From Clostridia bacterium (GTDB taxonomy: Bacteria > Bacillota > Clostridia > Christensenellales > Christensenellaceae), in assembly GCA_014805015.1 (NCBI GenBank), contig JAAUYQ010000093.1:1-64000 (forward strand): a stretch of DNA of 64,000 nucleotides, written 5' to 3'. Below the pieces are notes generated by a model. It was not told the DNA's origin. It did not search any database and saw nothing but the letters and a program-made list of their open reading frames with translations. Both the position numbers and the translations under genes were made by a program. Positions 10,726 through 52,814 of the stretch are shown in pieces; the first letter of the stretch is position 1; each line of letters begins with the position of its first letter.

Positions 10726-12005
10726 AATCATACCTCACAGAGTCTTTTGGCGTATCGCCGGACAGTTATGACTGGGTTGCAGCCAGTGCCGAACGGCTTT
10801 CTGACGCGTTCAGGCAGATCGACAGGCGGGCAGCGCTGCTGCAGGCAAAAGTGCTGAAAGCGTTCCAGAAACAGGAAGTGGCATCGCGGCATTTCAGCGG
10901 CTCTACCGGCTATGGCTACGGAGATGAAGGGCGTGACAAGCTGTCTGCTGTTTATGCCGACGTCTTCGGTGCAGATGCAGCGATTGTCTCGCCGCTGATG
11001 ATGAGCGGCACGCACGCCATTGCCGAAGCGCTTTTCGGGATCCTGCGTCCTGGCGACACAGTGCTGTACATCACCGGCGAGCCTTATGATACGCTGCGGC
11101 CTGTCATCCAGGGCGGGCCCGGTTCGCTGGCAGATTTCGGAGTCAGATCCCGCTCTGCGTCCCTGCTTGAGAACGGCTTCGTGGACCTTGACCGCACGTT
11201 TGCGGAACTGAGAAAAGATCCTGCAATCCGAATGGTCTATCTGCAGCGGTCGACAGGATATGATCTGCGGCCCGCCTTCACAGCAGCAGAACTCGGAGAG
11301 GCAATCCGGGCGGTGAAAGAGCAGTACCCAGATGTGATCTGTATGGTCGACAACTGCTATGGCGAGTTCGTCTGTGACCAGGAACCGACAGCGCTGGGAG
11401 CCGATATGATTGCCGGGTCCCTGATCAAGAACCCTGGCGGTGGTCTGGCCCCGACGGGCGGCTACATTGCCGGAAGGGAGGACCTCATAAGACTGGTTGG
11501 CGGCCGCTACTCAGCGCCTGGTGTGGGAACAGAGATCGGATCGTACGTTCCAGGCTACCAGGCATTCTATCAGGGCCTTTTTCTTGCTCCGCACACTGTG
11601 GCGCAGGCTCTCAAGGGTGTTCTGCTCGCTGCAGACGTGTTCGCACAGCTCGGGTTTGAAGTTTCTCCGACTCCGGATGCAGTGCGGGGTGATATCACGC
11701 AGACAATCATCTTCAACGATCCCGGTGCCCTGACGGCCTTCGTGCGGGGAGTACAGCAGGCTGCACCGGTGGATTCGCATGTGGTTCCGTGCCCATGGGA
11801 CATGCCAGGATACGACGATCCCGTCATCATGGCTGCAGGAACCTTTGTCCAGGGAGCTTCGCTCGAATACACAGCGGATGGTCCCATGCGTCCGCCGTAT
11901 GCGGCCTACCTGCAGGGCGGTCTTACCTACGAGCACGCCTTCATCGCGACTGTACTCGGCTCAGCGGCGCTTGAGCACGATCAGAACCATGCTGCCGGCA
12001 GCTGA
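10710..12005 (+). CDS. PLP-dependent methionine-gamma-lyase-family (YnbB/aluminium-resistance-type) protein
   Basis: A 431-residue fold-type-I PLP enzyme of the Cys/Met-metabolism superfamily. The Schiff-base lysine is probably in SLIKNPGGGLAPTGGY. Family members are annotated as aluminium-resistance or methionine-gamma-lyase-like proteins, and the true substrate is not clear. The start is a GTG with GGAAGGGA about 12 bases upstream, inside the end of miaA. Location downstream of miaA matches the conserved mutSL-miaA-(hfq)-ynbB order of Firmicutes, which supports the assignment. Confidence 0.85.
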   Translation: MSDSLKSYLTESFGVSPDSYDWVAASAERLSDAFRQIDRRAALLQAKVLKAFQKQEVASRHFSGSTGYGYGDEGRDKLSAVYADVFGADAAIVSPLMMSGTHAIAEALFGILRPGDTVLYITGEPYDTLRPVIQGGPGSLADFGVRSRSASLLENGFVDLDRTFAELRKDPAIRMVYLQRSTGYDLRPAFTAAELGEAIRAVKEQYPDVICMVDNCYGEFVCDQEPTALGADMIAGSLIKNPGGGLAPTGGYIAGREDLIRLVGGRYSAPGVGTEIGSYVPGYQAFYQGLFLAPHTVAQALKGVLLAADVFAQLGFEVSPTPDAVRGDITQTIIFNDPGALTAFVRGVQQAAPVDSHVVPCPWDMPGYDDPVIMAAGTFVQGASLEYTADGPMRPPYAAYLQGGLTYEHAFIATVLGSAALEHDQNHAAGS

Positions 12006-12278
12006 GACGGGACGTGGCAGACACAGCGGATACATAGCCGGCCGAAGGCTGCGGAGATTTACAAAGTGGGTTAGCTGCAGCGCTGTGTTTTTGGCGTTAT
12101 GCCTCTGAGATGCAGAGCTGCTTTTGCCATAGAGGCGATCTGTTGCAGGAGAGGGAAGTGAACCGGCATGGGGATTTGGTTGCCACGTCAGCGTAAACGC
12201 TGCATTTCACGGTGGCAATGCAAAAGTCTGCACACGCAGGCAACGCAGGCAATGTCTGGGCCCTTACTGTTTTTTCTC
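12006..12278. other. Gene-free spacer before the toxin-antitoxin locus
   Basis: No ORF with family resemblance is seen. The stretch holds a small interrupted inverted repeat, TTGCCAC (12180-12186) / GTGGCAA (12212-12218), enclosing a second one, AGCGT / ACGCT. It also holds a tandem 9-base repeat CGCAGGCAA at about 12235-12252. No clear terminator for the preceding gene is visible. Confidence 0.4.
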
Positions 12279-12307
12279 TTGACGATGTGCAAAAAGTCCA
12301 GTACAAT
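12279..12307 (+). promoter_or_regulatory. Sigma-A-type promoter of the ToxI-like antitoxin RNA
   Basis: -35 TTGACG (12279-12284) and -10 TACAAT (12302-12307) are separated by exactly 17 bases. The predicted start at about 12314 lies directly in front of the first 37-base repeat, as expected for a type III antitoxin RNA. Confidence 0.8.
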
Positions 12308-12316
12308 ATATCAAAC

Positions 12317-12390
12317 AGCGGAGATTCCCTGCCATATAGTGGGAAGCGAAAAAAGCGGAGATTCCCTGCCATACAGTGGGAAGCGAAAAA
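12317..12390 (+). repeat. Two tandem 37-bp antitoxin repeats
   Basis: Unit 1 is 12317-12353 and unit 2 is 12354-12390. They differ at one position (CCATATAGT against CCATACAGT) and abut directly, so this is not a CRISPR with spacers. Three bases of a third unit (AGC) follow before the terminator stem. Confidence 0.95.
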
Positions 12391-12393
12391 AGC

Positions 12394-12423
12394 AAGAGGA
12401 GGCATTTGCTTCCTCTTTTTTTT
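12394..12423 (+). terminator. Terminator between antitoxin repeats and toxin gene
   Basis: Stem AAGAGGA (12394-12400) / TCCTCTT (12411-12417) with a run of eight T ending at 12423. In type III loci this attenuator lets most transcripts stop after the antitoxin and a minority read into the toxin. The toxin's GGAG ribosome binding site follows immediately at 12424-12427. Confidence 0.88.
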
Positions 12424-12433
12424 GGAGTGTGAA

Positions 12434-12703
12434 ATGGAGTTACGACTGTTCAGGATACGGGATGACTATATCAGTCATCTGCGAGCATACGATTCTCACG
12501 TCATGATGAACAAATCAGGCCGACCGTATGTCGGTGTGGTCTTCGATATCGGCACGTGCTGCTACTTTGCGCCGCTGACTTCGCCAAAGTCTAAGCACGC
12601 CAAGATGTGTAATTCCATAGATTTCATTAAGATTGCACGTGGACGCTACGGTGCCATCTGCTTGAATAATATGATTCCTGACACCATGGATCTTGTACAG
12701 TAA
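12434..12703 (+). CDS. ToxN/AbiQ-family type III toxin, N-terminal part ending at an in-frame TAA
   Basis: The 89 residues match my recollection of the ToxN/AbiQ endoribonuclease family. They open with a ...DDYISHLRAYDSHV segment, then RPYVGVVFDIG, the core motif FAPLTSPKSKH (TSPK at 49-52, near the active site in ToxN), an IDFIKI strand and NNMIPD. GGAG lies 6 bases before the ATG. The known family is about 170-200 residues long, and the reading frame continues after the TAA with matching sequence, so this is half a toxin. The locus lies directly behind the antitoxin repeats and terminator. The region looks less GC-rich than its neighbours, suggesting acquisition. Activity as read is doubtful. 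Confidence 0.85.
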   Translation: MELRLFRIRDDYISHLRAYDSHVMMNKSGRPYVGVVFDIGTCCYFAPLTSPKSKHAKMCNSIDFIKIARGRYGAICLNNMIPDTMDLVQ

Positions 12704-13165
12704 ATAGTCTTCAAAGAGGAACCGCCAGCTTATGGTCGTCTGCTTCAGAACCAGGTGCTCTGGATCCGCGAAAACAAAAATAAGCAGAAAATCATGACCT
12801 CTGCCGCTAAGCTGCATGCTCTGCTGCTGCGAGACAGTGATGAACGCTTCAACCAGCATGAACGGGCAATACGCAGGCGAAGCTGCAACCTGAAACTGCT
12901 GGAAGAAGCGCTCCTCGAGTTTTCCAGGCGGAACCCGGAGACCCCGGAAATGCCGGACGAAACTGATCCCATGGAGCCAGACGGACCTGAAGCGGAAATG
13001 ACAGAGCGGAATACGCTCGGCGGACTGAAGGCAGGTAGGGCGTCGCAGTGCGGGCACCCGACTGCGACGCTGCATGAAAACGAAGGAGAACAAACTGCAC
13101 CAGTCAGTCTGTTCAAAGCAACGAATGAGTCGACAGAAGAACCCAGGGACAGCCAGTCGGAATGA
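12704..13165 (+). pseudogene. C-terminal remainder of the ToxN-like toxin gene, same frame after the stop
   Basis: Directly after the TAA the same frame stays open for 153 codons. It encodes YGRLLQNQVLWIRENK, a helical stretch, and CNLKLLEEALLEF, which correspond to the C-terminal half of ToxN/CptN-type toxins. No frameshift is needed: replacing the single TAA with a sense codon restores a continuous protein. About 70 further residues, acidic and Pro/Glu/Ser-rich, have no counterpart that I recognise in ToxN. The final TGA overlaps the ATG of the primase-helicase gene. Possible internal starts are a GTG at 12755 and an ATG at 12794, neither with a convincing Shine-Dalgarno sequence. Confidence 0.7.
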
Positions 13166-16077
13166 GAAAGCATAGGTGCACAGTGGAGACAGGAGCAATC
13201 GTTAACAGCAAAGCCCGCATCCAGGACAGAATGTACGAGTTTGTGAAACTGGTCGACCGTCTCGACGCTGACGAACCTGTTGTCATCTGCCGGGCAGCGG
13301 ACGGCTCGCTGGGCGCCTGCTCGAAGCGCCAGTGGGACCAGAGCGTCGTGAAACCTGCAGAGCACGCATCTGGTCCTGTCAGCACGGAGAGCAGCGTCGC
13401 CGAAAAGATTGCCCTGTTCCGGTCCTATTTTCGCGGCCGCACGGACGTATATGCGAAACGGTTCTTCTCAGCCGAGACTGGACGGAGCGGATATACACCG
13501 GTGTGCAGGAATGAATGGCGCAAGGGCGTCTGCGACAAGAAGAGCACCCGCTGCGCGGCCTGCAGAAACCGTCAGTTCGTGCCGCTCCGCTCTGCGGCGC
13601 TTGTCGAGCATCTTCGGGGTACGGATGAATACGGCCGGGACGTCGTCGGCCTGTATCCGCTCCTTGCGGACGGATCAGCGTATTTCCTGGCTGCTGACTT
13701 TGACAAGACGGAGTGGAAGCTCGACGCAGCTGCTTACCGCAGCGCCTGCATATCTCTGGGCCTGACGCCGGCCGTGGAGCGGTCGCGCTCAGGTCAGGGC
13801 GCGCATGTGTGGCTCTTTTTTGATACTCCGATACCGGCCGGGAAAGCCCGCCAGCTCGGTGAACTGCTGCTGCATAAGGCGATGGACTTGCGGCCGGAGC
13901 TGTCGTTTGATTCCTTTGATCGGCTTTTCCCTTCTCAGGACACCGTCCCGAAAGGCGGCTTCGGGAATCTCATTGCGCTGCCATTCCAGGGACAGGCCCA
14001 GGCAGATGGAAATTCACTCTTTGTAGACGAAAACTACAATCAGTACGAAGACCAGTGGGCTTTTCTCTCTACGGTGCCCAAGATAACCGGCCGGCAGCTC
14101 GAAGCACTGCTGGCGGAGCAGGCGCTGTCCAGCCTGCAGCCGACAGCTGTGAACCGGGAACCGGCTCCTCCAGGATACACCGAAGAGCTCGCGGTTCTTG
14201 ATGGCAGCATGCTCCGTATTCCGAAGCAGGGTCTGCCCCGGGAACTGATCGCCGATCTGCGGCGAATCGGCACTTTCCCCAATCCGGAATTCTATAAAAA
14301 GCAGGCTATGCGGCTGTCTGTCTACGGCATTCCGCGGGTTATCGACTGCACGGAGGCCGATGAGAAATACCTGGCGCTGCCGCGCGGGTGCAGAGCCGAG
14401 CTTGCAGAGTATCTGCGCGAACGGGGAATTCGGAACACGTGGCACGACGAGCGGAACAGCGGCCGGGAAATTGACGTGACTTTTACCGGGACGCTGCGGG
14501 AAGAGCAGGCAGAAGCGGCCAGAAAACTGCTCGAACATGATACCGGCGTCCTCGCGGCAGCCACAGCATTCGGCAAAACTGTGGTTGCGGCATACATTAT
14601 GGCACAGTGCAGAGTGAACACTCTCATTCTGGTACCGTCCACTGCGCTGCTTGAACAGTGGAAAGGTGCACTCACGCGTTTCCTGGACATACGGGAAACG
14701 ACGGAGGTCCCGCCAGGTCTGGGCTGCAGGCGGCGCCTCGAGGTGATCGGCCAGCTCGGCGGCGGCAGACACACCAATGCCGGAATCATTGATATTGCTG
14801 TTATGCAGTCGCTGCTGGAAGGCCCGGAGAAGAAGGCCAAAAGTCTGGTGGGCGAGTATGGTCTGGTTATCTGCGACGAGTGCCACCATGTACCGGCTGT
14901 TACGTTCGAACGAGTACTCCGGGGTGTGCGGGCCCGGCGGATCTACGGGCTTTCCGCCACGCCCGCAAGGGCTGACGGTCTGCAGAAGATCATCTTCATG
15001 CAGTGCGGTCCAGTGCGCTTCGACATCGACGCGCGGCAGATGGCAGCTTCCCAGGACTTCAGGCGCATCATGCTGCCACGGTTCACCAGGGCAAGAGTCG
15101 CACCCGGGACGACGATCCAGGATATGCACGCAGCACTTTGTGCGAATGCCGACCGCAATGAGCTGATTCTGCGTGATGCAGCTGAGCTGAGCGCGGCCGG
15201 ACGGACACTGATGCTTCTGACGTCCCGCCGGGAACATGCCGCCTTCCTGGCAGAGGAACTCGCAGACAGGACAGAAGCGCAGGTATTCCTGCTGCTGGGA
15301 TCGGATCCTGTATCTGCCAGACGGGAGAAATTACGGACACTGCGCGCGGCGGATCCTGAGGAACCGCTGATTATCGTCTCCACAAACCGGTATGCAGGGG
15401 AAGGCTTTGATCTGCCGCATCTGGACACGCTGCTGCTCACAGCCCCGTTTTCCTGGAAGGGCACGCTCGCGCAGAATGCCGGCCGGCTGCATCGGGACTA
15501 TCCCGGAAAAAAGGACGTCCGCATTTATGATTACGTGGACCTGTATGTACCGGCGGCAGAACGGATGTTCGCCAAACGGCGTGCGGAGTACACCCGGCAG
15601 GGATATGAGATTGAGCCGGGTCTGAGGGAAAGCCGGGCCTGCGCCACCTATAGTGGTCCACAGTTCCTGGAACCGTTTGCCGCGGATCTGCGCGCGGCCG
15701 CGCAGGAGATCTATGTCTGTTCAAACGAAACAGACCCTGGTCATCTGGCGGAACTTGGCGCACTGCTCGCAGAGCAGCGGAAGGCAGGAGTAAATGTTCG
15801 CGTAAGACTGGGCGGCTCGAGCACAGAAAGCAGCGGGGAAGCGATGCTGCAGCAGCTGGGCATAGAAGCGGAGACAGACCCGGCAGTGACGTACTCGGCT
15901 GCGGTCATCGACCGGCAGATTGTCTGGTACGGCAGCATGAGCCTGCTCGGCTCGACGGATGGCGATCTGCTGCGCTTTGAAAGCAGGGATGCAGCCGGCG
16001 AATTCCTTGATCTTGAGCTCAACGAGGCAGAATCAGGGGAGAGATGGGAGCAGCTTTCCCTGGACAAGCGGATCTGA
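13162..16077 (+). CDS. TOTE-type archaeo-eukaryotic primase + SF2 helicase + degenerate PLD-like protein
   Basis: A 971-residue multidomain protein. Cysteines C115, C124, C131 and C134 form a probable zinc-binding element. A primase-like domain (about 160-300) has AADFD (D179, D181) and the SGQGAHVW histidine motif (H215), then FDSFDRLFPSQDTVPKGGFG. An SF2 helicase follows, with Walker A ATAFGKT (467-473), DECH (572-575), SAT (598-600) and motif VI QNAGRLHR (771-778). The C-terminus (about 835-950) resembles a PLD nuclease domain (IDRQIVWYGSMSLLG), but the HxK of the HKD motif is replaced by TYS. The architecture fits the family described in TOTE biological-conflict systems, so a role in defence is inferred. 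The ATG overlaps the toxin frame's stop; an ATG at 13231 is an alternative start. Confidence 0.85.
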   Translation: MRKHRCTVETGAIVNSKARIQDRMYEFVKLVDRLDADEPVVICRAADGSLGACSKRQWDQSVVKPAEHASGPVSTESSVAEKIALFRSYFRGRTDVYAKRFFSAETGRSGYTPVCRNEWRKGVCDKKSTRCAACRNRQFVPLRSAALVEHLRGTDEYGRDVVGLYPLLADGSAYFLAADFDKTEWKLDAAAYRSACISLGLTPAVERSRSGQGAHVWLFFDTPIPAGKARQLGELLLHKAMDLRPELSFDSFDRLFPSQDTVPKGGFGNLIALPFQGQAQADGNSLFVDENYNQYEDQWAFLSTVPKITGRQLEALLAEQALSSLQPTAVNREPAPPGYTEELAVLDGSMLRIPKQGLPRELIADLRRIGTFPNPEFYKKQAMRLSVYGIPRVIDCTEADEKYLALPRGCRAELAEYLRERGIRNTWHDERNSGREIDVTFTGTLREEQAEAARKLLEHDTGVLAAATAFGKTVVAAYIMAQCRVNTLILVPSTALLEQWKGALTRFLDIRETTEVPPGLGCRRRLEVIGQLGGGRHTNAGIIDIAVMQSLLEGPEKKAKSLVGEYGLVICDECHHVPAVTFERVLRGVRARRIYGLSATPARADGLQKIIFMQCGPVRFDIDARQMAASQDFRRIMLPRFTRARVAPGTTIQDMHAALCANADRNELILRDAAELSAAGRTLMLLTSRREHAAFLAEELADRTEAQVFLLLGSDPVSARREKLRTLRAADPEEPLIIVSTNRYAGEGFDLPHLDTLLLTAPFSWKGTLAQNAGRLHRDYPGKKDVRIYDYVDLYVPAAERMFAKRRAEYTRQGYEIEPGLRESRACATYSGPQFLEPFAADLRAAAQEIYVCSNETDPGHLAELGALLAEQRKAGVNVRVRLGGSSTESSGEAMLQQLGIEAETDPAVTYSAAVIDRQIVWYGSMSLLGSTDGDLLRFESRDAAGEFLDLELNEAESGERWEQLSLDKRI

Positions 16078-16145
16078 ATGGCCGCAGAAAGATGGCAGGC
16101 GGCAGCGAAGGCCGCCCTGGGCTCTCCTGCGTAAAAAGACACGAA

Positions 16146-16180
16146 AGACCTCCTGTCCGGGCGGTTGAGGCAGGAGGTCT
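16146..16180 (-). terminator. Terminator-like hairpin after the integrase gene
   Basis: AGACCTCCTG (16146-16155) pairs with CAGGAGGTCT (16171-16180). On the minus strand it is followed by a T-rich stretch, so it suits the integrase transcript; it also lies after the helicase gene on the plus strand. The surrounding 16078-16259 has no gene. Confidence 0.6.
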
Positions 16181-16259
16181 GTATCGGTCCCCGCCGGATC
16201 GCAGGCTTCTGAAGCCGCATCCCGTGAAGAGCAGCAGTCAGGCTGGGAGGCTGGACGCG

Positions 16260-52630: not shown

Positions 52631-52814
52631 CTGGAAATCCGTCAGAGGTGCGCCTCGTGATCAGTACGCTGCGTCAGGTTCCGGCCATGAACCGCACACC
52701 GCAGCTGAAAGGCACCGGCGCCGAAGGACAGGTCGCAGCCGGCTTCCTGCTCCTGGGCGGACGGTCAACAGCCGTCCGACTGTCATGATCCATGGTGCGC
52801 TGCAGAATTTCCGG
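52631..52814 (+). promoter_or_regulatory. Lysine riboswitch (L-box) aptamer
   Basis: P1 forms from CTGGAAAT (52631-52638) and ATTTCCGG (52807-52814). Conserved L-box elements appear in order: AGAGGTGCG at 52644-52652, ATCAGTA, AAAGGCACCGGCGCCGAAG at about 52708-52726, and a long hairpin GGACGGTC / GCCGTCC followed by ACTGTCATG. These correspond to the B. subtilis lysC leader elements known to me. Upstream of asd-dapA-dapB, a lysine-responsive off-switch is the expected logic. The element fills most of the 463-base gap between the divergent genes. Confidence 0.85.

What the first reader, a model, noticed from the sequence alone, without database searches (positions are those of the whole stretch)
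12701..12703. Single in-frame TAA splits the ToxN-like toxin
The frame is open from 12434 to 13165 apart from one TAA, and both halves match the family on the two sides of it without any gap or frameshift. Codon 90 is thus the only defect. The options are a recent inactivating mutation, with the antitoxin kept, a sequencing error, or programmed readthrough. A toxin-dead, antitoxin-intact locus would be an anti-toxin immunity remnant.
Basis: partly seen in the sequence, partly recalled or inferred. Interest (0 to 1): 0.7.

Follow-up and report, generated by a model that had tools for sequence, protein, structure and literature searches.

The report
Broken ToxN toxin beside intact antitoxin
A bacterial self-poisoning anti-phage module (type III toxin-antitoxin, ToxIN kind) has an intact RNA antitoxin but a toxin gene cut in half by one stop codon; this is most likely an ordinary, fairly young loss-of-function mutation.

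Summary
The TAA at 12701-12703 is real in this sequence. It splits one reading frame whose two sides each match the ToxN family independently (8.9e-25 and 3.9e-6; 2.4e-36 joined). Upstream lies a complete ToxI-type antitoxin: sigma-70-like promoter, two 37-nt repeats that fit the family's pseudoknot, and a terminator. None of 22 related ToxN proteins stops at that column, and no suppressor tRNA was found among 44 tRNAs. The locus is therefore a toxIN module with a nonsense-disrupted toxin.

The family match ends near 12916-12930; the last ~80 codons of the 'open frame' are an unmatched tail that could be open by chance. The half behind the stop is also the weakest-scoring C half of 20 relatives, so some erosion may have followed.

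The module and a TOTE-type primase-helicase gene form a 4.2-kb insert between two genes that are direct neighbours in seven related genomes. Broken ToxN genes occur elsewhere (at least three others seen). Programmed readthrough is unlikely, and an 'immunity remnant' is possible but has no positive evidence. A sequencing or consensus error cannot be excluded without reads. Low interest.

The parts
12279..12307 (+). sigma-70-like promoter TTGACG-17-TACAAT in front of the antitoxin
   Evidence: 10 of 12 consensus matches; one such site in 11950-13300, about what chance gives, but placed as in other toxIN loci
12313..12349 (+). antitoxin RNA repeat 1 (ToxI-type, 37 nt)
   Evidence: aligned with relatives' repeats
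12350..12386 (+). antitoxin RNA repeat 2 (95% identical to repeat 1); a partial third copy runs to 12393
   Evidence: all four stem-2 pairs of the pseudoknot kept
12394..12423 (+). intrinsic terminator between antitoxin and toxin
   Evidence: 10-pair stem, then T run
12424..12427 (+). Shine-Dalgarno GGAG, 6 nt before ATG 12434
   Evidence: read
12434..12703 (+). toxN 5' part: 89-aa ORF ending at the TAA
   Evidence: PF13958 8.9e-25
12701..12703 (+). premature TAA at codon 90
   Evidence: column has sense codons in 22 of 22 relatives
12704..12925 (+). toxN 3' part, same frame, still recognisable as ToxN
   Evidence: PF13958 3.9e-6, profile 101-157; lowest C-half score of 20
12926..13165 (+). 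unmatched in-frame tail of ~80 codons; coding status doubtful
   Evidence: no family match, 3 of 6 frames open, open by chance 9%
13162..16077 (+). TOTE-type AEP primase / helicase gene, cargo of the same insert
   Evidence: PF22548 1.1e-91, ResIII 8.3e-20; PADLOC PrimPol
12006..16259 (.). insert carrying toxIN + TOTE between two genes that are neighbours in related genomes
   Evidence: miaA, PLP-enzyme gene and xerS-like gene adjacent in 7 same-family genomes

Best explanation
This is a chromosomal type III toxin-antitoxin locus of the ToxIN/AbiQ kind. It was acquired with a TOTE-type primase-helicase gene as one small defence insert, and its toxin gene has since been inactivated by a nonsense mutation at codon 90. 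The promoter and terminator should still make the antitoxin RNA (inferred from sequence). The toxin message should give an 89-residue fragment. That fragment keeps the N-terminal region with the conserved 'PLTSPKxKH' motif, but lacks the segment aligned with the long helix and C-terminal core that fold the enzyme and bind the antitoxin (alignment shown; loss of function inferred). Because the toxin normally cuts its own antitoxin precursor, the RNA should stay unprocessed. The locus should then no longer trigger abortive infection, and losing the toxin would cost the cell nothing because only the antitoxin is left.
For: Independent, collinear ToxN matches on both sides of the stop. Complete toxIN anatomy upstream, with repeats fitting a covarying family pseudoknot (93% of cells paired, covariation 0.411 against 0.216 shuffled). 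A sense codon at this column in 22 of 22 relatives, with variable residues, so no sign of a conserved stop. No stop-reading anticodon among the tRNAs of the genome; TAA ends 3 of 18 confident genes in the window, so it works as a stop here. Only one ToxN in the genome. Comparable wrecks in the phylum: L002 truncated at profile position 41, L187 split by a frameshift, L185 lacking its N-terminus. Weakest C-half score of 20 relatives, as expected if constraint behind the stop is relaxed. Insert located by synteny.
Against: No reads and no second strain, so a consensus error at one base is not excluded. The low C-half score is only a rank of 1 in 20, and functional AbiQ-like L039 is nearly as skewed (C/N 0.29 against 0.28). 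The closest intact relatives are only 44-50% identical, so no dN/dS test was possible. The 89-aa fragment could have an activity of its own.
Confidence: 0.74

Rival explanations
1. Sequencing, assembly or population-consensus error: the living organism has an intact toxN, and the stop is an artefact of this 102-contig draft.
For: Draft genome; only one base is needed to make a stop; no frameshift or indel breaking the frame inside the toxin domain; antitoxin and both sides of the toxin look functional.
Against: Single-base consensus errors are rare in ordinary short-read assemblies (general knowledge), and no other interrupted coding frame stood out in the 64 kb (coarse scan). The eroded C half and the missing canonical start of the neighbouring TOTE gene would need separate explanations.
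Confidence: 0.13
2. Antitoxin-only immunity remnant: the toxin is dead but the antitoxin RNA is kept by selection because it neutralises incoming cognate ToxN toxins (anti-addiction) or blocks the abortive response of a cognate ToxIN.
For: Two full repeats with all stem-2 pairs intact; a published minimum of 1.8 repeats suffices for antiQ (PMC5086642); an incoming toxin could itself process the precursor; other broken ToxN loci kept no more than one repeat (L002, L187).
Against: Recency explains the same pattern. Type III antitoxins are toxin-specific (PMC5086642) and no ToxN above 50% identity was found in the genomes, plasmids or phages searched, so no cognate threat is known.
Confidence: 0.07
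3. Programmed or functional stop: either TAA readthrough yields a little full-length toxin, or the 89-aa N-terminal fragment is a product in its own right.
For: Frame intact behind the stop with a recognisable family match; the N half scores like those of intact relatives (113.8 bits) while the C half is the weakest.
Against: TAA is the tightest stop; no suppressor tRNA; no relative has a stop at this column; the fragment lacks almost half of a single-domain fold.
Confidence: 0.04

Closest known systems
ToxIN / AbiQ subfamily of type III toxin-antitoxin systems (ToxN of Bacillus thuringiensis 4ato, ToxN of Pectobacterium 2xd0, AbiQ of Lactococcus 4glk; organism names of the entries from own knowledge)
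   Same: Toxin family match over the full 159-position profile, best solved relative 4ato at 1.2e-13, PADLOC AbiQ 3.1e-34; promoter - tandem 37-nt repeats - terminator - toxin order; pseudoknot-like repeat shared with relatives.
   Different: Toxin ORF interrupted by TAA at codon 90; a frame tail of ~80 codons past the usual end; followed by a TOTE primase-helicase gene, which none of 84 other TOTE loci pairs with ToxN.
Decayed ToxN loci L002 (G009), L187 (G775), L185 (G440)
   Same: ToxN gene broken by truncation, frameshift or N-terminal loss.
   Different: Those keep no more than about one antitoxin repeat; here two repeats, promoter and terminator are intact, suggesting a younger lesion.

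Membership tests
Type III toxin-antitoxin, ToxIN/AbiQ | ToxN-family toxin sequence | tested here: met
   PF13958 2.4e-36 with the stop masked, each side significant alone; AbiQ model 3.1e-34
Type III toxin-antitoxin, ToxIN/AbiQ | Tandem short repeats (about 34-37 nt in the ToxIN family) upstream, as antitoxin RNA | tested here: met
   Two 37-nt copies, 2.2 in all
Type III toxin-antitoxin, ToxIN/AbiQ | Rho-independent terminator between repeats and toxin | tested here: met
   12394-12417 plus T run
Type III toxin-antitoxin, ToxIN/AbiQ | Repeat RNA folds as a ToxI pseudoknot | tested here: met
   Stem 2 four of four pairs kept in both window repeats and covarying across the family; stem 1 two canonical pairs, the third being the A/G alternative also seen in other rows. 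Sequence evidence only
Type III toxin-antitoxin, ToxIN/AbiQ | Intact, translatable toxin ORF | tested here: not met
   TAA at codon 90; so a broken member, not a working one
Type III toxin-antitoxin, ToxIN/AbiQ | Endoribonuclease activity, antitoxin processing, phage abortive infection | not testable with these tools
   needs the bench
Programmed stop-codon readthrough gene | Stop conserved in relatives, suppressor tRNA or readthrough signal | tested here: not met
   0 of 22 relatives; no suppressor among 44 tRNAs
Programmed stop-codon readthrough gene | Full-length product present | not testable with these tools
   needs proteomics
TOTE conflict system (neighbouring gene) | AEP-TOTE domain fused to a superfamily-2 helicase | tested here: met
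   PF22548 1.1e-91, ResIII 8.3e-20
TOTE conflict system (neighbouring gene) | TPR, OB and TBP partner components | not tested
   no search for these partners was made; component list from PMC12458937

The most novel reading that the evidence does not exclude
The toxin is lost, but the antitoxin RNA is maintained by selection as a stand-alone immunity RNA that captures incoming ToxN toxins: a type III counterpart of the anti-addiction antitoxins proposed for type II systems.
Probability: 0.06. Interest if true: 0.5.

Novelty: new member of a known kind. Interest (0 to 1): 0.2.

Why it matters
It adds one clear case of a type III toxin-antitoxin module losing its toxin while keeping a complete antitoxin, which is the first step such modules would take on the way to decay or to antitoxin-only immunity. 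It also places toxIN beside a TOTE-type primase-helicase gene in one insert. By itself it changes no general picture; its use is as a starting point for asking how often orphan ToxI RNAs persist.

Tried and rejected
Close relatives to read the ancestral codon: two collection scans with the toxin and the genus search found none; the genus holds only this genome, and the nearest ToxN proteins are 44-50% identical, so dN/dS was impossible. The E. coli population of a ToxIN plasmid was too small to give a rate of broken toxins (2 genomes). A recurrent break point was considered, because L187 also breaks near profile position 90, but it is a frameshift in a distant TenpN-like copy with one repeat. 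ATGA coupling of the toxN frame to the TOTE gene was considered and not relied on: the tail is doubtful as coding sequence, and the TOTE start is uncertain. Rfam gave no ToxI match at threshold or below it. No repeats marking the insert's ends were found.

Full report
Observation. The frame from ATG 12434 reads 89 codons to TAA 12701-12703 and is then open to TGA 13163-13165. The two sides match Pfam ToxN_toxin separately (8.9e-25, profile 2-88; 3.9e-6, profile 101-157) and together at 2.4e-36. Among solved structures the masked read-through protein is closest to ToxN 4ato (1.2e-13), then 7d8o, 2xd0 and AbiQ 4glk. The whole-genome search gives this as the only ToxN of a 2.70-Mb, 102-contig genome, with one TAA inside.

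Limits of the open frame. The family match stops near residue 161-165. The following ~80 codons have no family match; three of the six frames are stop-free there, and the stretch stays open in 9% of dinucleotide shuffles. By contrast the 73 codons behind the stop that do match ToxN have family evidence. So the open frame to 13165 should not be read as a 243-residue toxin. Long C-terminal tails do exist in some relatives (L038, 290 aa), so a natural extension is not excluded.

Antitoxin. A TTGACG-17-TACAAT promoter (12279-12307), two 37-nt repeats (12313-12386, 2.2 copies) and a 10-pair terminator (12394-12417) precede a GGAG ribosome site. This is the genetic layout that defines type III systems in the review PMC5086642. 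Aligned with repeats of related loci, a two-stem pseudoknot drawn by me pairs in 93% of cells with covariation 0.411 (shuffled mean 0.216; slid controls 0.16 or less). Both window repeats keep all four pairs of stem 2; the third position of stem 1 is the A/G alternative also present in other relatives. The structure was drawn from the sequences themselves, so the slid control favours it somewhat. According to PMC5086642, 1.8 repeats are enough for antiQ to work, while 2.5 were needed for ToxI of P. atrosepticum; two repeats are thus within the known range for this family.

What the stop does. The column carries a sense residue in all 22 relatives, of many kinds (I, V, P, A, Y, N, E, L, K, T, D), so nothing suggests a conserved stop. 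ARAGORN on the tRNA loci found no stop-reading anticodon among 44 tRNAs. TAA terminates 3 of 18 confident genes in the window, the rest mostly TGA. Readthrough is therefore unlikely. The 89-residue product keeps the 'PLTSPKSKH' region, whose T/S residues are the proposed nucleophile region in ToxN and AbiQ (PMC5086642). It lacks the segment aligned to the long helix that the review calls the main antitoxin-binding site. Loss of function is inferred, not shown.

Age of the lesion. In leave-one-out profile scoring of 20 ToxN proteins, the window's N half is ordinary (113.8 bits), but its C half is the lowest (31.4 bits; others 34.7-65.4; C/N ratio 0.28 against 0.29-0.55). Conserved-column counts point the same way, within the range of intact distant members (4 of 14 mismatches in the C half). 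This is a weak sign (rank 1 of 20) that the half behind the stop has had relaxed constraint for a while. It sits badly with a pure sequencing error, but does not exclude one.

Other broken ToxN genes. In family, phylum and order surveys with the Pfam model, L002 (same family as the window's organism) ends at profile position 41, L187 is split by a frameshift, and L185 lacks its N-terminus; the first two retain about one antitoxin repeat and a terminator, and no repeats were seen in front of L185. Broken toxN loci are thus not rare, and the window's locus looks younger because its antitoxin is complete.

Surroundings. In seven same-family genomes the order mutL - miaA - PLP-enzyme gene - xerS-like recombinase (opposite strand) is unbroken, with about 60 bp between the last two; in the window 12006-16259 is inserted exactly there. 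The insert carries toxIN and a 971-aa TOTE-type primase-helicase (PF22548 1.1e-91). None of 84 other TOTE loci carries a ToxN nearby, so the pairing is probably a local defence-gene assembly rather than a conserved system. The TOTE gene's homologues L091 and L092 start 'MNRKAII', which aligns without gaps to 'VNSKARI' at 13201-13221; that V codon is not a start codon although AGGAG lies just before it. An ATG at 13162 or GTG at 13183 could serve instead. This may be a second lesion in the same insert.

Verdict. A ToxIN/AbiQ-type toxin-antitoxin locus whose toxin is interrupted by a real or apparent nonsense codon. Ordinary pseudogenisation of a defence gene is the best reading (0.74), consensus error the main rival (0.13). 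The immunity-remnant idea remains open but unsupported (0.07), and a functional stop is unlikely (0.04).

Noticed in passing
13162-13221: The TOTE primase-helicase gene has no start codon at the place where its close homologues (L091, L092) begin, although a Shine-Dalgarno-like AGGAG precedes it; upstream ATG 13162 (overlapping the TGA of the toxN frame) or GTG 13183 may be used.
   Followed up: partly
12006-16259: toxIN + TOTE gene lie as one 4.2-kb insert between convergent genes that are direct neighbours in seven same-family genomes; no flanking repeats found.
   Followed up: partly
13038-13072: Strong perfect hairpin (GCGTCGCAGT ... ACTGCGACGC) inside the unmatched tail of the toxN frame, without a T run; folds at about -26 kcal/mol with flanks.
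   Followed up: no
L187 (G775), around locus position 1731: A TenpN-like toxin broken by a frameshift close to the same profile position (~90) as the window's stop, with a single antitoxin repeat.
   Followed up: partly
52635-52810: Lysine riboswitch (RF00168, 82.5 bits).
   Followed up: no
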